NCBI RefSeq assembly: GCF_900113695.1
Contig: NZ_FOQH01000002.1
Location: forward strand, 620,001 to 684,000
Source: Albimonas pacifica
GTDB taxonomy: Bacteria; Pseudomonadota; Alphaproteobacteria; Rhodobacterales; Rhodobacteraceae
Reading direction: 5' to 3'
DNA length: 64,000 bases
Under the pieces are notes generated by a model. That model was not told the DNA's origin, searched no databases, and worked only from the letters and a program-made list of their open reading frames with translations. Shown here in pieces: positions 27,480-34,627 of this stretch. Position 1 is the stretch's first letter. Every line of letters starts with the position of its first letter. The position numbers were made by a program, and so were the translations under genes.

Positions 27480-28124
27480 TCAGGGCAGGTCGATCGGGCG
27501 CTCGATGGGCGGGGCGGCGGGAGGCTCCTCGCCGTCCTCCTCGTCTTCGGGCGCCGCGATCTCGTAGTCGCCCAGGTCGCCGTCCGCGGCGGGGGCGAGC
27601 GGGGCGAGCGCCTCGGGCCGGGGGGTGGCTTCGGCCGCGAAGGGCAGAGGGGCCGCGGCGGGCAGGTCGAAGGCGTCGAGGTCGAAGTCCAGCCGCAGCG
27701 ACAGCCTGTCCAGCGCCCAGGCCTTCAGCGTCGCCAGGAACTCGGGCGCGTTGCGCGGGATGCGGCGGTGCTGGACCCCGCCGGGGAAGTCGGTCGAGGG
27801 CTCCTTCACCGCGAGGTCCTCGGCGGCGTTCAGCGGGTCGATCAGGCCGGCGAGATAGTCGGCCATCCCGGGCCGGGCGGTCACGACCGCGATCCGGCCG
27901 AGCGCGTCGATCCGCCCTTCGCCCAGCGGCGTGGCGCCGCCCTGGGGGTCGATCCAGGCGATCGAGACGGGCGTCGAGGGGGCGTCGTCGCGGGCGGCGT
28001 CCGTGTCCGGGGTCGACATCTGCGGGCTCTCCTGGGCCGAGGTCTGCTGGGCGGGGCTTTCGGGGACGGGGCCCTCGGCGACGGGACTCTCGGGGACGGG
28101 GCTCTCATGGGCAGGGGGCGGCAT
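27480..28124 (-). CDS. Acidic Pro-rich protein, partner of the giant repeat protein (unknown)
   Basis: A 214-residue protein I do not recognise. The first 35 residues are a low-complexity series of PVPES-like pentads; residues 50-160 look globular (VSIAWIDPQGG, PLNAAEDLAVKEPS, FLATLKAWALDRLSLRLDFDLDAFDLP); the rest is acidic and Pro-rich. No signal peptide or TM. Its ribosome-binding site GAGGAGG overlaps the stop region of the giant gene 13 nt upstream, so the two are tightly coupled. That position and acidity would suit an immunity protein, chaperone or adaptor for the upstream product, but this is inference. Confidence 0.7.
   Translation of the reverse strand: MPPPAHESPVPESPVAEGPVPESPAQQTSAQESPQMSTPDTDAARDDAPSTPVSIAWIDPQGGATPLGEGRIDALGRIAVVTARPGMADYLAGLIDPLNAAEDLAVKEPSTDFPGGVQHRRIPRNAPEFLATLKAWALDRLSLRLDFDLDAFDLPAAAPLPFAAEATPRPEALAPLAPAADGDLGDYEIAAPEDEEDGEEPPAAPPIERPIDLP
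28057..28116 (-). repeat. 15-bp tandem repeat encoding PVPES-like pentads
   Basis: Four consecutive 15-bp units (boundaries 28057, 28072, 28087, 28102) encode the repeated pentapeptide PVPES / PVAEG at the N-terminus of the acidic protein. Prone to copy-number change. Confidence 0.7.
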
Positions 28125-28137
28125 GGTCGCGTCCTCC

Positions 28138-31100
28138 TCAGACCGTGGCGGGGGCGGCCTGGGAGGCGCGCGCGTCGGCGTCGTCCGGGTCGCCCGTCAT
28201 CGGCGGCGGCGGCGGGCCCTGCACCAGCCTGCGCACGCCCTTGCCGACGGCCCAGGCCTCGGCCTCGATGGGCTGGGCCTTGTAGGCGTGGTGGTCGTCC
28301 TGGGGGACCACATAGCCGCCGGCCCCCTTGTTCGCCGCGAAGATCCGGGCCTGATCGTACTCCGGATCGCCGGGCTCGAGCAGGCCTTCGTCGAGCTGGC
28401 GCACCAGCGCCTCCTGGTAGTTGTGCACGTTCTCGTGGACGACGGTGTCGAGCATCTCGAGGAAGTCGTCCATCATCGCGGTCGGGTGGCCGTTCACGCG
28501 GATCACGCGCATCGAGGCGTTGTAGTAGCCCGAGGAGGCGGGCATCGCCGCCTCGAAGATCTCCACCGCCACCGGGTCCATGCCGTAGATCTCGCACTCC
28601 ACCGCCACGGTGCGCTGCAGGGCCTTCAGCCGGTCGGCCAGGGACAGGGTCGCCCATTCGGCGCGCGCGGCCTGCAGGTCGTCGTCCTCGGCGATGCGGT
28701 CGGCGAGCTCCTGCTGGCGCTCCGCCTCCAGCGCCTGGAATTCGGGGCTGGGGGTCATCGCCTGGTAGAGCTTGTTCTGCAGCGCCCGCTCGTCGGGCTC
28801 GAGCGCGTTTCGCCCGGCGCGCAGGGCGTCGAGCAGGTCGAGCTTGCGGTCCGCGCTCAGCGCCTGCAGGTCGGCGGGCGAGATCGCGTCGAGCTCGGCC
28901 TTCGCCTCGGCGCGCGCGGTCTCGGCCTTCGCCGCCTCGACCTCGTAGAGCTCGGCGTCCGCGTCGGCGGCCAGCACCGAGCCGTCGCGGGGGTCGACCG
29001 AGCCGGCGGGCAGGGTCACCCGGGCGCGGGCGGCGGCGAGCTGGGCCTGCACCGCGGTCTCGAGCGCGGGGACCGCGGCGACCGCGGCGGGGAAGTCGAG
29101 CTCGTAGCGCAGCCGATCGACCGTGCCGTAGGCCTCTTCGCGCGCACGGGCCAGCCGCCTGAGCTCGGGCGTCAGCGGGCGCAGCGCCTCGGCGGCCTTG
29201 CGGTCGGCCCGCCCGGGGGCGAGCGCGGCCGTCACGGCGTCGTAGCCGGCGCGGGCGGCGTCATGCTCGGCCTTGCGGGCGAGCAGGGCGTCGACCGCGA
29301 CCACGACTTCGGGCCAGGCGGCGTTGGCCTCGGCGTAGCGCTTTGCGTTCGCCGCGATGCTGAAGACCTGGTAGCGGCGGCTCAGCACCGCCAGGTCGCG
29401 CGCCACCTCCGGCGTGCAGGCCTTCATGTCCAGCGCCGCGCGGACGTCGGCCTCGCGGGCGGCCCAGGCGGATTCGAACGTCTGCATCTCCGGCAGGGCC
29501 GCGTTGTAGGTCGGCGCGAAGGCGGCGGCGTCGGTCAGGGTGCGGTCGATCTCGTCGAGCTTCTGCTCCGCCTCGTGCCAGCGGCTCGCGCCGGTCAGCG
29601 CGTTCAGCTCCTGCGCCTGCGCGACGACCTGGTCCTGCAGCTCGCCGATCCGGGGATGGACCCGGCGGAGCAGCTGGGTGACCGTCACGATGTCGGCCTT
29701 GAGCAGGGGCGTGAGCCGCGCCCTCACCCGGGCCGCGACGCCGTTGGTCTTGGTCACCGCCTGCTTGCGCACCGACTTGATCCAGTCGGCGACCTTGCGG
29801 GCTTCCGCGCGCAGGGCGATCGCCTCCATCCAGCGCAGGTCGGAGGCCGCGGCGTCGGCGGCGGCGAGCTTGCGCTCCAGGTCCGCCAGGGCCTTGTCGA
29901 GCGCGGGGCGGTTGGCCTCGGCGATGGCGCGGGCGGCGGCGCAGACCGGGTCGGTCTTGCGGATCGCGGTCTGCAGCGCCTCGTAGGTCTTGGTCGAGGC
30001 CCTGGTCTCGGCCTCCGCGCGGGCGAGCAGGTCGCGGGCGGCGGCCTTCAGCGCCTCGAGGCGCTGGGGCCAGTCGAGGGCGCCGCCGACGTTGGCGGCC
30101 TGGAAGGCGTCGAAGGCGCGGCGCAGCGCGCGCTGCAGCTCCAGCCCCTTGGGCGTGGCGACGCGCATGTCGAGCGCGCGCTGGATGCCCGGGGCCACCC
30201 GGCGATAGGCGGCGTAGGAGTCGGACTGGCGCCGGACCGCCTGGGCCTCGGCGTCCGCGATCGCGTCCACGTCGGCGATCGCGGCCTCCATCCGCCGGAC
30301 CACGTCCTCGGCCGCGTCGACGTCGGCGGCGCGCTCGGCGGCCTCGAAGTCGCGCCCGAGGCCGCGGACCCTTTCCTTCCAGGCCTCGACGCCCGGATCG
30401 ACGCTGACGCCGCGCGGGACGCGCACCAGCGCGCCGACCGCGGCGTTCCAGCGCTGGAGGGCGTCGCGGAACCGCGGCACGGCGGCGTCGGCGTCGGCCT
30501 GGACGCGCAGGAGCTCGGGCATCGAGGCGATCCAGAGGTCCGCGCTGCGGATGCAGGCGGCCCAGTCGTGCCTGGCCTGCGCCTCGGCCAGCGCCTTCCA
30601 GTGCTTGCGGTATTCCGCGAGCGCGGCCTTCGCCTCGGGCGTGGACTCGGGGATGCGGGGGAGCGCGGCGGCCTGCCGTTTGGCCTCGCGGATGCGGTCC
30701 AGGGCCGTGGTCTCGGCGGCCTTCAGCGTGTCGAACTCGGGCTTGCGCGCCACCAGCCGCCGGGCGTCGTCCACGGCGAAGGCCAACGCCTGGCGGGCGG
30801 CGGCGTATTCGTGGCGGGCGAGCTTCTGGTGGAACAGGGCGTCGGCGTTCTCGAAGACGCGGATGTCCTCGCCGAGCGCGCCGCCGATGTCGTAGATCGC
30901 GCGCGCCTCGTCGAACAGGGCGGCGTGGCGGGCGGCCTCGGTCATGAGCTGTTCGCGCTCGATCTCGGCCTGGCGCACCAGGGCCGCCTCGACGTCGATC
31001 AGGTCCGCCACGGTCTTCATCTGCGCGACCACGTCGGCGGGGGCGGCGGCGGGATCGCGGGAGGCGACCATCTTGTCGAAGCGCAGCTTCAGGCGTTCGA

Positions 31101-32148
31101 GCCTGCGGTGCAGCTTCTCGGCCTCGCGGGTGCCGCGGGGCACGGCGGCGGCGCGCTCGACGTCCTCGCGGATGCCGTCGAAATCGGCCAGGGCGCCGGC
31201 GATGCGCGCCTCGGCGGCCTGCGCGTCCTGCAGCGGCTCGGCGGCGGCGTCGGGCTGCGCGTTGGGGAGCGGGTTCTCCCTGACCAGCTTCGCGACCGTC
31301 AGCAGCGCCCGGTTCGCCTTGGCGTGATCGCCCCCGGCGGCGGCGAATTCGGCGAAGGCGAGCGCCTCGCGGATCATCGCCTTGCCGGGCACGTCGGCCT
31401 GCATCGCCGCCTGCGCCTTGGGCTCGAGCTCGGCATGGGCGCGGGCGTAGCGGGCGGCGTGCTCCTGGCCGCGGCGGGCGGCGTCGATCTCGGTCAGGCG
31501 GGGCTCGAGCCGGCCGGCGATGCGCATCGCGCGCACGAAGTCGCCCCGGCCGGCGGCATCCTGGGCCATCGCCAGCATGTCGCGCACCGTCTGCGGGTTG
31601 CCGGCGCGCCCGGCGAAGGTCTTCTCGAGCAGGGTCTTCAGGCGGCCGGGCGCGGAGGCCCACTGCGCCTTCGCCTCGGCCTGGGCCTTCGCCTCGGCCT
31701 CCAGGCGCAGGCGGGCCTCGAGCGCGTCGGCGTCGGCCTCGGGGTCGCCGCCGTCGTCGGTTCCGGCGAGGGTTTCGGCGTCGTCGTCCTCGCCCTGCTC
31801 CAGCACCGCGCCAGCGTCGTCGCAGACCTCGACCTTGCGCGAGACGCCGACGACCTTCCTCAGGAACGCCTGGATCTTGCCCGCGAGGCCGGTGGGGGGG
31901 CGTTCGGCGCAGAACAGGCGCAGCACGCCGCCGTCGAGCGTCATCTCGCCGCGCGCGGTTTCGGTGCGGCCGGTGCGCTGCTTGGCGGTGCGCTCCATCT
32001 CGGTGGGGCGCAGGCCGCGGCCGCCGAAGAACACGGTCTCGGCCGGGTTCGCGCCGATGCACAGGCCGAAGGGGCGGCGCGCGCCGGCGCTGTCGCCGAT
32101 CGCGCGCTTGAGGTCCTTGGCCTCCTGTTCGGACATCGGCTGGGGCAT
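28138..32148 (-). CDS. Giant helical-repeat protein with C-terminal HExxH zincin-like domain (unknown)
   Basis: A 1336-residue protein without a family I can name. Residues 20-117 form a compact mixed domain (FGLCIGANPAETVFFGG, ending AGAVLEQ), then an acidic linker to about 140. From about 165 to 1045 there are roughly eleven helical repeats whose core (xD-aromatic-xxAxxxL) recurs near 202, 273, 364, 446, 527, 608, 691, 770, 855, 936 and 1017, that is about every 81 residues. Residues 1180-1310 hold HENVHNYQ (H1238, E1239, H1242) and a downstream IEAEAWA Glu, a metallopeptidase-like site. No signal peptide or TM. ATG at 32148 has AAGGAG 7 nt upstream. Coupled to the acidic gene downstream; the layout recalls polymorphic toxins. 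Confidence 0.8.
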   Translation of the reverse strand: MPQPMSEQEAKDLKRAIGDSAGARRPFGLCIGANPAETVFFGGRGLRPTEMERTAKQRTGRTETARGEMTLDGGVLRLFCAERPPTGLAGKIQAFLRKVVGVSRKVEVCDDAGAVLEQGEDDDAETLAGTDDGGDPEADADALEARLRLEAEAKAQAEAKAQWASAPGRLKTLLEKTFAGRAGNPQTVRDMLAMAQDAAGRGDFVRAMRIAGRLEPRLTEIDAARRGQEHAARYARAHAELEPKAQAAMQADVPGKAMIREALAFAEFAAAGGDHAKANRALLTVAKLVRENPLPNAQPDAAAEPLQDAQAAEARIAGALADFDGIREDVERAAAVPRGTREAEKLHRRLERLKLRFDKMVASRDPAAAPADVVAQMKTVADLIDVEAALVRQAEIEREQLMTEAARHAALFDEARAIYDIGGALGEDIRVFENADALFHQKLARHEYAAARQALAFAVDDARRLVARKPEFDTLKAAETTALDRIREAKRQAAALPRIPESTPEAKAALAEYRKHWKALAEAQARHDWAACIRSADLWIASMPELLRVQADADAAVPRFRDALQRWNAAVGALVRVPRGVSVDPGVEAWKERVRGLGRDFEAAERAADVDAAEDVVRRMEAAIADVDAIADAEAQAVRRQSDSYAAYRRVAPGIQRALDMRVATPKGLELQRALRRAFDAFQAANVGGALDWPQRLEALKAAARDLLARAEAETRASTKTYEALQTAIRKTDPVCAAARAIAEANRPALDKALADLERKLAAADAAASDLRWMEAIALRAEARKVADWIKSVRKQAVTKTNGVAARVRARLTPLLKADIVTVTQLLRRVHPRIGELQDQVVAQAQELNALTGASRWHEAEQKLDEIDRTLTDAAAFAPTYNAALPEMQTFESAWAAREADVRAALDMKACTPEVARDLAVLSRRYQVFSIAANAKRYAEANAAWPEVVVAVDALLARKAEHDAARAGYDAVTAALAPGRADRKAAEALRPLTPELRRLARAREEAYGTVDRLRYELDFPAAVAAVPALETAVQAQLAAARARVTLPAGSVDPRDGSVLAADADAELYEVEAAKAETARAEAKAELDAISPADLQALSADRKLDLLDALRAGRNALEPDERALQNKLYQAMTPSPEFQALEAERQQELADRIAEDDDLQAARAEWATLSLADRLKALQRTVAVECEIYGMDPVAVEIFEAAMPASSGYYNASMRVIRVNGHPTAMMDDFLEMLDTVVHENVHNYQEALVRQLDEGLLEPGDPEYDQARIFAANKGAGGYVVPQDDHHAYKAQPIEAEAWAVGKGVRRLVQGPPPPPMTGDPDDADARASQAAPATV

Positions 32149-32385
32149 CGCCTGCTCCTTCTCCAGCGGGGTCTGTCCGTTGGTGCCCGCGGGGGCGGAG
32201 AAGGTTCACGGGGAAGGGGCGCGCGTCGGGCCTCGGGGGCGGGGCGCCGCGTCGGGCGTCGCGCGGGCCGCGCCCGCCCGCCCGCGGCGCGGCGGCGGCG
32301 TCGCGCCCGGGGCGGGCGGGCGGCGCAGGGCGCGCCGGATCGGGGAGGGGCGGGGCCCGCGGCGGAGGGGCCGCGGCGCGCGCGC
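32149..32385 (-). other. 237-bp gap with a 13-bp hairpin upstream of the giant gene
   Basis: Nearly pure G/C. A perfect 13-bp inverted repeat (32271-32283 / 32310-32322) with a 26-nt loop lies between the protease-like gene and the giant gene. The gap may separate two transcripts or attenuate read-through into the giant gene. No ORF is supported. Confidence 0.4.
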
Positions 32386-33219
32386 TCAGTCGGCGATGCG
32401 GGTGGCGAGGCGGTAGCGGGTCAGCTCCTCCTCGACCAGCAGGTACATGTCCTCGGGCGGGGTCTGGAGCGAGTGCACCAGCATCACCGGGTCCACCCCC
32501 ATCTCGGACAGATAGGCGAGGGTCTCGCCCTGGCCGCGCTGGATGTTCTCGACCGCCAGGAAGGCGGGGAGGATCGTGGACTCGTCGTAGTAGTGCTGGT
32601 GCAGGCCGACCCAGGCGGTGCGCGAGACCACGCGCTCGACCCCGCCCGCCAGCGCGTAGGGGCAGGCCGACAGGCACGCCGCGTCGGGCAGGGCGAGGGT
32701 GGTCAGCTCCAGCTCCCGCAGCCGCCGGCCGATGGCGAGCGCCTGGTCCACCGAGCCGCCGGGGGAGTGCAGGGCCACCGCGTCGGGCGGCTCGGGCAGG
32801 CTCTCGACATAGCCGCGCAGGCGGGCGGCGGCGCCCTCGTCGATGCCGCCCGTCGCCAGCATCACCCGGCCGAACGCCTCGGTCTCGTGCATCGAGAACT
32901 CGAGCCGCGGGGGCAGGGTGGCGGGCAGGGGGACGGGACCGGTGGAGGGCTGCTCGGGCCCCAGGCGCGAGGGCACGCGGCCTGGCGAGAACGGCCGGCG
33001 CTGGTCGCCGGGCGAGACCGGGGTCTCGGGCGCCGTGCGGATGCCCTCGCGCCCGGGCAGGCGCAGCTCCCCCCAGCCGGTCTCGACCGCCAGCAGAACC
33101 GCCACCAGCACCTGGGCCGCGAGGCAGAGCCGCAGCACCAGCCGCGCCGAGGGCAGGCGGGAGAAGGGCGGGCGCGGCGTTGGGGCCTCGGCGTCCGCGG
33201 CGGGGGCCTGGGCGCTCAC
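32386..33219 (-). CDS. Membrane-anchored ClpP/crotonase-fold protease-like protein
   Basis: A 277-residue protein with one N-terminal TM helix (about 27-46), a Pro-rich spacer, and a C-terminal domain resembling periplasmic ClpP-like proteins (COG3904 type). The oxyanion loop is LHSPGGSVDQAL (151-162), the presumed nucleophile is Ser184 in CLSACPYAL, and the presumed His lies in VGLHQHYYD (207 or 209). The domain is predicted to face the periplasm. Start is GTG at 33219, one base after the stop of the upstream membrane gene, so they are coupled. Proteolytic activity is inferred from conserved residues. Confidence 0.75.
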   Translation of the reverse strand: MSAQAPAADAEAPTPRPPFSRLPSARLVLRLCLAAQVLVAVLLAVETGWGELRLPGREGIRTAPETPVSPGDQRRPFSPGRVPSRLGPEQPSTGPVPLPATLPPRLEFSMHETEAFGRVMLATGGIDEGAAARLRGYVESLPEPPDAVALHSPGGSVDQALAIGRRLRELELTTLALPDAACLSACPYALAGGVERVVSRTAWVGLHQHYYDESTILPAFLAVENIQRGQGETLAYLSEMGVDPVMLVHSLQTPPEDMYLLVEEELTRYRLATRIAD

Positions 33220-33220
33220 C

Positions 33221-34627
33221 CTACTCGGCCGCGTCGATCTTCAGGCGGGAGGGGCCGCGGGGGCCGGGGGCGGGCTCCGCCTCGGGCTCGGTCTCGGGCC
33301 GGAGATCGGGGCGCGGGTCGGGTCGGGCGTCGGGGCGGGGCTCCGGGCCATGGGGGGCGGCGCGCCCGGGGGCGTCCCCGCGTGCGTGGCGGGCGTGTTC
33401 GGCGGCGCCCATGGCGCCCTCGATGTCCTTCATCGCGCGCATGGCGGCGCGCAGGTCCGCGAGCGTCAGGGTCGCCTCGGCGCCCGCCCCCTCCTTGCCG
33501 CGCCGGATCGCGGCCTGGGTGACGGCGAGGATGAAGACCAGCACCCCGGGCAGCAGGTCGATGGCGATGGCGCCGGCCCAGGAGGGGGCGAAGTTGCCGG
33601 CATAGCGGATCACCGCGTCGGCCGAGGAGATCGGGGTGTAGGTCGTCTCCTGCGGCGGCGGCATCGCCAGCACTTCCTCGGCCGCCGTGCGCAGCGTCGC
33701 CGCGCGCCCGTCCAGCGCCTCGAGCACCGAGCCGATGGTGGCGGCCTGGTCCTGGCGCACGCCGGCGGAGGCGCCGTCGAGCTCCGGCAGCACCACCGAG
33801 GCGCGCAGGTCCTCGGCGGCGCGGGCCACGAGCTGGGCGACCTGGAGCTGGCGCAGGGTGGTGATGACGCCGGCGAGGCGGACGGATTCCTCGGAGAAGG
33901 TGACCGAGCGCTGGTCGACCGGCCCCTGCGCCACGATCAGCGCGCGCATCCGGGAGAGGATGTCGTTGCCCTCCTCGAAGGCCGCCTGGATGGGCTGGTT
34001 CTGGGCGGCGATCTGCGCCTCCAGCGCGCGCAGCTCGTCGGCCTTCTGGTTCAGGAGGCGGAACACGGCGCCCCGGCCGGCGGCGCCGGAGAGCTCTCCC
34101 GCCCGCTCCTGCTCGGAGAGGTCCTCGAAGGAGGTGCGGGCGCGGGCCACGTCGCGCTCCAGCCCCTGGGCGGAGACGGCGATCAGGTGGGCGCGCTCGA
34201 GGCTCGCCTGGTAGTCCTGCACGGTGCGGGCGAGGTGCTGTTCCACCGCGGCGCCCCCGGCGAGGGCGGCCGCGTTCAGCCAGCTCGACATCGCCACGAT
34301 GGCGACGGAGCCCACCAGCGTGGCGATGGAGAGCCCCACGAAGCCGCCGGCGGTGCGCATGGCGGGCAGCAGGCGGAGCAGGTAGCTCCAGAACACGAAG
34401 ATGCCGACGGAGACGGCGATGGAATAGGCGACGGCGGCGAGGAAGCTCATCGCGCCGGTGTCCTTCAGCAGGGAGGAGACGCCCAGATAGGTGTAGATGC
34501 CCGAGGCGACGGCCAGCACCCCCAGCGCCGCGGGGGTGAAGGCGTCGAGCCAGGTGAGGTGGCCCTCGAGCTCGCGGGCGGAGCGAAGTCCGTTGACCTC
34601 GTCCCGCGTCAGATCCTGTTCGCTCAA
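33221..34627 (-). CDS. Four-TM membrane protein with long coiled-coil domain (unknown)
   Basis: A 468-residue inner-membrane protein I cannot assign to a family. Predicted TM helices are at about 31-50, 62-85, 94-116 and 350-373. Between the third and fourth lies a helical, coiled-coil-like segment (about 125-320), probably on one face of the membrane. The C-terminal tail is Pro/Asp/Arg/Glu-rich and disordered. Start is TTG at 34627 with GGAG upstream. It heads the four-gene unknown locus and directly precedes the ClpP-like gene, so it could be the membrane platform or sensor for the system. Confidence 0.72.
   Translation of the reverse strand: MSEQDLTRDEVNGLRSARELEGHLTWLDAFTPAALGVLAVASGIYTYLGVSSLLKDTGAMSFLAAVAYSIAVSVGIFVFWSYLLRLLPAMRTAGGFVGLSIATLVGSVAIVAMSSWLNAAALAGGAAVEQHLARTVQDYQASLERAHLIAVSAQGLERDVARARTSFEDLSEQERAGELSGAAGRGAVFRLLNQKADELRALEAQIAAQNQPIQAAFEEGNDILSRMRALIVAQGPVDQRSVTFSEESVRLAGVITTLRQLQVAQLVARAAEDLRASVVLPELDGASAGVRQDQAATIGSVLEALDGRAATLRTAAEEVLAMPPPQETTYTPISSADAVIRYAGNFAPSWAGAIAIDLLPGVLVFILAVTQAAIRRGKEGAGAEATLTLADLRAAMRAMKDIEGAMGAAEHARHARGDAPGRAAPHGPEPRPDARPDPRPDLRPETEPEAEPAPGPRGPSRLKIDAAE

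What the first reader, a model, noticed from the sequence alone, without database searches (positions are those of the whole stretch)
27480..34627. Unrecognised four-gene locus: TM/coiled-coil protein, ClpP-like protease, giant zincin-repeat protein, acidic partner
Four minus-strand genes with short spacing, or coupled starts, encode a set of proteins that would make sense as one machine: a membrane platform, a periplasm-facing serine protease-like protein, a giant repeat protein with a metallopeptidase-like end, and a small acidic coupled protein. I recognise none of the outer two and no named system with this combination. Seen: gene order, motifs, coupling. Inferred: that they work together.
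Basis: partly seen in the sequence, partly recalled or inferred. Interest (0 to 1): 0.8.

Follow-up and report, generated by a model that had tools for sequence, protein, structure and literature searches.

The report
Roseobacter type VI zincin effector pair
Two of the four neighbouring genes look like a bacterial injected protein-cutting toxin and its matching partner, carrying a previously unnamed front domain that marks a family of likely weapons of one kind of bacterial injection machine; the other two genes are an unrelated pair.

Summary
The four ORFs are real but form two units. A+B (TM/coiled-coil and ClpP-like proteins) are a conserved pair: A in 43 of 195 related genomes, B downstream of A in 20 of 20 loci held, C in none of these but our own. 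C+D are a rare accessory module.

C has a new ~120-aa N-terminal domain without Pfam/NCBIfam match, a helical middle and a C-terminal HENVH zincin. A profile of that domain hits 33 of 394 family genomes, up to 11 copies each. Of these, 32 have a type VI secretion system (T6SS; background 101 of 394), all with a second divergent TssC-like sheath protein: 32 of 39 such genomes against 1 of 355 others. C-termini are polymorphic; four classes have their own downstream partner family. D homologues directly follow C's zincin in 4 of 4 close relatives, window included; in two, the N-terminal domain is a separate neighbouring gene.

Best reading: C is a T6SS cargo effector (metallopeptidase toxin), D its cognate immunity protein, and the N-terminal domain a new lineage-specific T6SS secretion domain. 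Secretion, toxicity and immunity are inferred, not tested.

The parts
28138..32148 (-). Gene C: candidate T6SS cargo effector, 1336 aa (new N-terminal domain + helical middle + C-terminal zincin)
   Evidence: ORF; N-terminal domain profile hit; relatives
31780..32148 (-). N-terminal domain of C (about residues 1-123), member of a T6SS-linked domain family
   Evidence: Profile A1 matched 31780-32139 at E 3e-38 (this sequence is itself in the profile); found first by single-sequence similarity; AF2 alpha/beta model pLDDT 78
28969..31701 (-). Helical, weakly repetitive middle of C (about residues 150-1060)
   Evidence: Weak self-similarity; aligned middle in L016; helical character by sequence reading
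28141..28971 (-). C-terminal region with zincin-like metallopeptidase domain (residues 1060-1336)
   Evidence: 44% identity to L016 over the domain; AF2 pLDDT 84.5; Foldseek list rich in HExxH metallopeptidases but no E below 0.001
28423..28437 (-). HENVH zinc-binding motif (residues 1238-1242); candidate third ligand E1295 in YKAQPIEAEAW at 28264-28266
   Evidence: H1238, E1239, H1242, Y1289, P1293, E1295 invariant in 4 of 4 aligned rows with L016, L017, L022 and in 4 of 4 with L172-L174
27480..28124 (-). Gene D: acidic 214-aa partner, candidate immunity protein; a second possible start is the ATG at 28019
   Evidence: D homologues of 147-149 aa directly downstream of the zincin gene in L172, L173, L174; pI 4.05
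28133..28138 (-). AGGAGG Shine-Dalgarno sequence for D, overlapping the stop codon of C
   Evidence: Sequence
33221..34627 (-). Gene A: membrane/coiled-coil protein. NOT part of the module; first gene of a separate conserved pair
   Evidence: 43 of 195 relatives; B downstream in 20 of 20 loci
32386..33219 (-). Gene B: ClpP-like protein with one N-terminal hydrophobic segment. NOT part of the module; second gene of the A-B pair

Best explanation
C and D are an effector-immunity type module of a type VI secretion system. C's ~120-residue N-terminal domain (called NTD here) is a lineage-specific T6SS secretion or loading domain. It couples cargo to the T6SS encoded about 300 kb away on the same contig, whose cluster carries a second, TssB-TssC fusion sheath protein. 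C's long helical middle is a spacer or scaffold, and its C-terminal zincin cleaves a target in the recipient cell. D, translated right behind C, binds and neutralises the zincin in the producer and its kin. In relatives the same job is split between a short NTD protein (adaptor), a separate zincin and D; in this genome adaptor and toxin are fused. Genes A and B upstream are an unrelated conserved pair. Shown: domain family, co-occurrence, adjacency, partner specificity, split and fused forms. Inferred: secretion, loading, catalysis, toxicity, immunity.
For: (1) NTD profile: 33 of 394 family genomes, 86 places, up to 11 per genome; 2 of 337 class genomes, our own and G433. (2) TssC (PF05943): 101 of 394 overall, 32 of 33 NTD-positive genomes; Fisher p = 5e-20. 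By subtype: NTD in 32 of 39 genomes with a second divergent TssC-like match, 0 of 62 with TssC but without it, 1 of 293 without TssC; p = 4e-39. G433, outside the family, has NTD and TssC. The p-values ignore relatedness, but the 33 genomes are from 33 genera. (3) 20 of 80 NTD loci hold T6SS core genes in the fetched stretch; in 18 of them the NTD gene is next to tssA and divergent. One such place is an annotated Leisingera caerulea T6SS cluster, where the gene is 'hypothetical protein'. (4) The own genome has TssC and a second TssC match; by sequence reading the cluster also holds TssA, B, Hcp, E, F, a TssB-TssC fusion, VgrG, PAAR, FHA and TssK. (5) C-terminal ends of 80 of 86 NTD proteins (6 too short) fall into 24 classes, including DUF4781 + Endonuclea_NS_2 over cut-off in 2 proteins; CdiA_C over cut-off lies in the gene next to a tandem-NTD gene. 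(6) Class-specific partners: 9 of 10, 5 of 5, 5 of 5 and 2 of 2 for four C-terminal classes. (7) D homologue directly after this zincin in 4 of 4 loci; the profile was built from two of them, L173 and L174 are independent hits; none in the other 80 NTD loci. L173 and L174 carry a separate NTD gene beside D, and both genomes have the two-TssC T6SS. (8) Second split/fused case: G433 has an NTD gene, a separate HEVGH protein and a CpXC partner in a row, where Rhodobacterales have a fused giant.
Against: No secretion, toxicity or immunity was tested. G029, which has the best full-length match to C with a D homologue and an NTD giant elsewhere, has no TssC hit (98% complete) and no NTD gene near its zincin. 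7 of 39 two-TssC genomes show no NTD (two of them 76% complete). More distant zincin relatives L017 and L022 have no D homologue, so D goes with the close zincin relatives only. Other NTD classes do not have one partner each: the commonest (28 proteins) has mixed neighbours, and so have classes of 7 and 4. C's own genome has no NTD gene inside its T6SS cluster. No VgrG or PAAR match lies in the fetched stretches of the 80 loci, so the loading platform is unknown. The zincin fold matches have no E below 0.001 and the first-ranked is a transcriptional regulator. C's NTD is a long branch (1.57), its place in the tree unresolved, and it is only 31-34% identical to the separate adaptors. The fusion of TssB and TssC was seen by reading in the own genome only; elsewhere I saw just a second TssC match in frames of 554-1781 aa. 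D could equally be a chaperone.
Confidence: 0.74

Rival explanations
1. NTD proteins are T6SS assembly or regulatory factors (chaperones, adaptors, baseplate accessories) that stay inside the cell; the zincin of C processes or activates other secreted proteins, and D regulates it.
For: The commonest NTD class is short (257-639 aa) and often encoded beside T6SS genes. Many short NTD proteins are followed by a large separate protein.
Against: Up to 11 copies per genome with unrelated C-termini, nuclease domains over cut-off, and class-specific small partners are expected of polymorphic effectors, not of a core assembly factor.
Confidence: 0.17
2. One reading: A, B, C and D form one membrane-anchored proteolytic machine.
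For: Same strand and contiguous in this genome; A and B are 1 nt apart, C and D 13 nt.
Against: A-B occur without C in the 1.5-kb flanks of the 19 other loci held, including two congeners that lack C altogether; B-C gap of 237 nt; no A or B match in L016 or L172-L174; A and the NTD share only 3 of 40 A-positive genomes.
Confidence: 0.03
3. C-D is a toxin module exported by something other than the T6SS, or used as an intracellular toxin-antitoxin; the T6SS link of the NTD holds for other family members only.
For: G029 has the zincin, a D homologue and an NTD giant but no TssC hit; the zincins of L172-L174 lack the NTD.
Against: C itself carries the NTD; three of four genomes with zincin + D have the two-TssC T6SS; C has no 19-residue hydrophobic segment that could act as signal or anchor.
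Confidence: 0.06

Closest known systems
RIX domain effectors and secreted adaptors (Vibrionaceae; PMC10435454: abstract, sections 7 and 10 read)
   Same: N-terminal domain defines polymorphic T6SS proteins; found fused to toxins and in secreted adaptors; orphan genes; restricted to one bacterial lineage; 97.7% of the genomes carry a T6SS; antibacterial members precede a possible immunity gene.
   Different: RIX is 55 residues, arginine-rich, two helices, in Vibrionaceae and Moritellaceae; the NTD is about 120 residues, lysine-rich (Arg 4.7%, Lys 12.5% on average), alpha/beta in the model, in Rhodobacterales and one Hyphomicrobiales genome, and one copy often sits inside the T6SS cluster. Secretion was shown for RIX, not here.
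MIX, FIX, PIX and WHIX T6SS secretion domains (WHIX paper PMC12135965: abstract and introduction read; MIX motif recalled)
   Same: Modular cargo effectors with a secretion domain and variable toxic domains, with cognate immunity genes.
   Different: No match of 12 NTDs to any Pfam or NCBIfam model; MIX-type motif as recalled absent in 86 of 86; FIX, PIX and WHIX not compared directly.
TssCL-type roseobacter T6SS (PMC9515649: section 12 and passages read)
   Same: The T6SS of our genome has a TssB-TssC fusion besides TssB and TssC, as described there for Leisingera and others.
   Different: Section 12 reports an effector search of one strain against known effectors and says no function is described for these T6SSs; it names no such domain family. 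The present finding supplies a candidate repertoire.
HExxH metallopeptidases with minigluzincin/zincin folds (jannalysin 4jix, 6mdx, IrrE/PprI) and Pfam Tox-MPTase2
   Same: HExxH on a helix with strands before it; Foldseek probability 0.98 for jannalysin and 0.96 for 6mdx (a SprT-type domain, recalled).
   Different: No Foldseek E below 0.001; Tox-MPTase2 score 11.9 against a cut-off of 25.

Membership tests
RIX-type T6SS secretion domain | 55-residue arginine-rich two-helix domain of Vibrionaceae | tested here: not met
   NTD 98-125 residues matched, Arg 4.7% on average over 86; alpha/beta model; Rhodobacterales
MIX-type T6SS secretion domain | hRxGhhYhh-type motif (recalled) | tested here: not met
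   0 of 86 NTD proteins, strict or loose pattern; pattern from memory
WHIX, FIX, PIX domains | Sequence similarity to these domains | tested here: inconclusive
   No Pfam or NCBIfam hit for 12 of 12 NTDs; the domains themselves were not compared
Polymorphic T6SS cargo effector class (generic) | Shared N-terminal domain with diverse C-terminal domains, some recognised toxins | tested here: met
   80 of 86 proteins clustered into 24 C-terminal classes; Endonuclea_NS_2 over cut-off in 2. The domain begins within about 40 codons of the longest ORF's start in 74 of 86; in 12 the start is uncertain
Polymorphic T6SS cargo effector class (generic) | Genomic link to T6SS | tested here: met
   32 of 33 NTD-positive against 101 of 394 overall; 20 of 80 loci hold T6SS core genes
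Polymorphic T6SS cargo effector class (generic) | T6SS-dependent secretion | not testable with these tools
   Needs a secretion assay
Effector-immunity pair (C-D) | Cognate partner gene directly downstream and specific to the toxin domain | tested here: met
   4 of 4 close zincin loci have a D homologue next to them; none in the other 80 NTD loci. Not found with the distant zincins L017 and L022
Effector-immunity pair (C-D) | Partner neutralises the toxin | not testable with these tools
   Needs co-expression
HExxH metallopeptidase (zincin) | HExxH and conserved third ligand in a zincin fold | tested here: inconclusive
   Motif conserved in 4 of 4 and 4 of 4 rows; AF2 pLDDT 84.5; many PDB matches are metallopeptidases but all E are 0.14 or more
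Pfam Tox-MPTase2 | Score above the curated cut-off | tested here: not met
   11.9 bits against 25
Four-gene A-B-C-D system | Conserved gene set in the same order | tested here: not met
   A-B without C in the flanks of 19 of 19 other loci held; no A or B in L016, L172-L174

The most novel reading that the evidence does not exclude
The NTD is a dedicated secretion domain of the roseobacter T6SS with the TssB-TssC fusion sheath. Many such systems have an NTD hub protein encoded beside TssA and a dispersed, rapidly diversifying arsenal of NTD-fused toxins and NTD adaptors with separate toxins. C is a fusion in which adaptor and metallopeptidase toxin became one protein. This would be the first effector family of that T6SS subtype.
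Probability: 0.55. Interest if true: 0.82.

Novelty: new variant of a known kind. Interest (0 to 1): 0.7.

Why it matters
A T6SS subtype with a fused sheath protein has been described in roseobacters, but the paper (section 12 read) states that no function was known for any roseobacter T6SS (PMC9515649). The NTD gives a search handle for its likely effectors: 82 candidate proteins in 33 genomes here, most outside T6SS clusters and 'hypothetical protein' in the named records seen (one row has no annotated gene). It bears out the speculation in the RIX paper that other bacterial families have their own T6SS secretion domains. It makes testable how large effectors are loaded, what the fused-sheath T6SS attacks, and what the partner proteins (D, CpXC-type and others) do.

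Tried and rejected
Rejected: the four-gene machine. Rejected: an anti-phage system or a phage protein family; no PADLOC hit for the four proteins, no PHROGs hit for C or D and only an E 0.008 hit for one adaptor, and no C relative in 50,697 phage or 72,556 plasmid records at E 1e-5. Led nowhere: solved-structure sequence search with the NTD and zincin profiles (the 3bc1 hit at E 0.0019 covers a 50-residue stretch before the zincin core and was taken as chance); Foldseek with the NTD (best E 0.08, coactosin/ADF-H-like, not accepted); NTD tree too shallow to place C; repeats of C only weakly demonstrable. Literature: (no paper with all five terms); none of the titles and abstract starts listed there describes this NTD, and PMC9515649 is the one listed paper on the TssCL T6SS. 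PMC10673891: abstract only.

Limits of counts: my gene caller is a simple heuristic, so start sites, neighbours and gaps are approximate. The two-TssC class was assembled by hand from the listing (which was cut off) and completed for three genomes: G354 was added. Left out were genomes whose second match is far away or of another kind (G396, G006, G326, G109), lies directly beside the first (G024, G065, G247, G249, G328, G389), or is a fragment (G192); counting G396 in would give 32 of 40. In five NTD genomes (G070, G115, G257, G290, G330) the two matches are on different contigs. Fisher tests ignore relatedness. The 40 A-positive genomes of the control are the 43 less three that I took to lie outside the set. 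The NTD profile contains C's own NTD. The 86 NTD proteins are all 86 places (82 proteins after merging tandem copies) plus 4 proteins of G433. In one search I trimmed each protein to the nearest ATG, so one search's finding that the NTD is always N-terminal is partly built in; one search gives the untrimmed figure (74 of 86 within 40 codons). T6SS labels in L160/L161 other than PF05943 are by reading.
Full report
What was checked. The four minus-strand ORFs are at the stated coordinates and look coding by codon-position G+C. A (33221-34627) and B (32386-33219) are 1 nt apart; C (28138-32148) and D (27480-28124) are 13 nt apart, and the AGGAGG in front of D overlaps C's stop codon. Between B and C lie 237 nt. 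No family of Pfam or NCBIfam reaches its cut-off in any of the four, and PADLOC gives no hit.

Two units, not one. A matched 43 of 195 related genomes (three of the hits are weak). In the 20 loci held, B lies downstream of A on the same strand in 20 of 20, including both congeners (in L041 after a gap of roughly 0.5 kb); C appears in the 1.5-kb flank only in our own. Gene maps of the congeners show other genes after B, and neither has a C match in its genome. C matched 2 of 61 and 15 of 394 genomes, own included. Of the other 14, one match covers residues 309-1315 (G029), ten cover only the N-terminus, two only the C-terminal end, one a middle stretch. C is therefore modular, accessory and distributed unlike A. 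A and B have no match around C's closest relatives.

The N-terminal domain family. Twelve N-termini gave a 121-position profile (A1), and none of the 12 has a Pfam or NCBIfam match. The profile hits 33 of 394 family genomes at 86 places, up to 11 in one genome, but only our own and one other of 337 class genomes. I fetched these places and found 86 proteins carrying the domain: 82 from the family, window included, and 4 from G433. Six have it twice. In 74 of 86 the domain lies within about 40 codons of the longest ORF's start; in 12 it lies 44-275 codons in and the true start is uncertain.

Link to the type VI system. TssC (PF05943) occurs in 101 of 394 of the same genomes and in 32 of the 33 domain-positive ones. 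The exception is G029. The link is to one subtype: I counted 39 genomes with a second, divergent TssC-like match, and 32 of these have the domain; 0 of the 62 other TssC genomes and 1 of the 293 without TssC have it (hand-made class, see the limits in Tried and rejected). As a control, gene A is found with TssC at the background rate (10 of 40). G433, from another family, has the domain and TssC. In 20 of 80 loci T6SS core genes lie in the fetched stretch; in 18 the domain's gene is next to tssA and divergent from it. In Leisingera caerulea this arrangement is annotated as a T6SS cluster with our gene as hypothetical protein. Our own genome encodes such a T6SS about 300 kb from C on the same contig, including a 1044-aa TssB-TssC fusion by reading. 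A fusion of this type has been described as TssCL in roseobacters (PMC9515649, section 12 read).

Polymorphic C-termini with matching partners. Clustering the last 130 residues of 80 of the 86 proteins (6 were too short) gives 24 classes, 16 of them single proteins. Four multi-member classes have one downstream partner family each: HExxH-type giants of 967-1945 aa with a CpXC-type protein (9 of 10), 1160-1351 aa proteins with a 144-148 aa protein (5 of 5), about 440 aa proteins with a 93-107 aa protein (5 of 5), and DUF4781/Endonuclea_NS_2 proteins with a 130-133 aa protein (2 of 2). The other multi-member classes (28, 7, 4 and 3 proteins) do not show this: their neighbours are mixed, T6SS-cluster genes, or large separate proteins. 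One giant (L024) has HQLGR in place of HExxH. A protein next to a tandem-domain gene carries CdiA_C over cut-off.

In all three a D homologue of 147-149 aa directly follows the zincin gene; with the window that is 4 of 4. The D profile was built from the window and G029, so the other two are the independent hits; it hits in none of the other 80 domain loci and not at the more distant zincins L017 and L022. In Ruegeria sp. HKCCD8929 and a Paracoccaceae MAG the zincin has no N-terminal domain; a separate short domain protein lies next to D, convergent, and both genomes have the two-TssC T6SS. In G029 no domain gene is near. C thus looks like a fusion of adaptor and toxin. G433 gives a second case: a domain protein, a separate HEVGH protein of the giants' type and a CpXC partner in a row.

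Structure. AlphaFold models: domain pLDDT 78.4, alpha/beta, no confident PDB match; zincin region pLDDT 84.5, with HENVH in a long helix after three strands. Foldseek's list for the zincin is rich in HExxH metallopeptidases (jannalysin, 6mdx, IrrE/PprI, MATCAP, deuterolysin), but no E-value is below 0.001 and the first-ranked entry is a transcriptional regulator. C and D lack hydrophobic 19-mers.

Mechanism. Most likely C is loaded on the T6SS through its N-terminal domain, delivered into a neighbour, and cuts a target with its zincin, while D protects the producer. Shown: anatomy, genomic association, partner specificity, split and fused forms. Inferred: loading, delivery, cleavage, immunity. 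Whether the domain is bound by VgrG, PAAR, Hcp or the sheath is unknown; no VgrG or PAAR match lies in the fetched stretches of the 80 loci.

Against. G029 lacks TssC; seven two-TssC genomes lack the domain; our own T6SS cluster has no domain gene; the place of C's domain in the tree is unresolved; no function was tested.

Known or new. The kind (N-terminal secretion domain with polymorphic toxins, and adaptors) is known from MIX, RIX, PIX and WHIX (PMC10435454 and PMC12135965, parts read). This domain differs from RIX in size, composition and predicted fold, is unnamed in the libraries searched, and is tied to another T6SS subtype. I saw no paper on it in the listings.

Noticed in passing
window 32386-34627 (genes A and B): Conserved two-gene unit (membrane/coiled-coil protein with three hydrophobic segments + ClpP-like protein with one N-terminal hydrophobic segment); A is 62-85% identical in its strong hits within the family, no family name; function open.
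   Followed up: partly
L161 4042-7176 (own genome, contig C31 about 342-345 kb): T6SS cluster of the window's genome encodes a 1044-aa TssB-TssC fusion besides separate TssB and TssC, like the published TssCL.
   Followed up: partly
L019, L024, L026, L103, L105, L107, L111, L142, L148, L151, L165, L166, L168; L182 9406-11008: Beside the T6SS genes of this subtype lie ExbB/ExbD-like proton channel genes and a caspase-family gene, near the domain gene.
   Followed up: no
L020, L028, L029, L108, L109: Short domain proteins followed by two or three large genes of 482-1231 aa; the 7 scanned, from L020, L028, L029 and L108, have no Pfam match over cut-off.
   Followed up: partly
L140 2742-5837: Protein downstream of a domain gene carries a serine/threonine kinase domain over cut-off.
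   Followed up: no
L017 7102-9072 and L022 5535-8006: More distant relatives of C's zincin end (HEMGH, HEVGH) without the N-terminal domain and without a D homologue; L017's downstream small gene looks by reading as if it has a signal peptide.
   Followed up: partly
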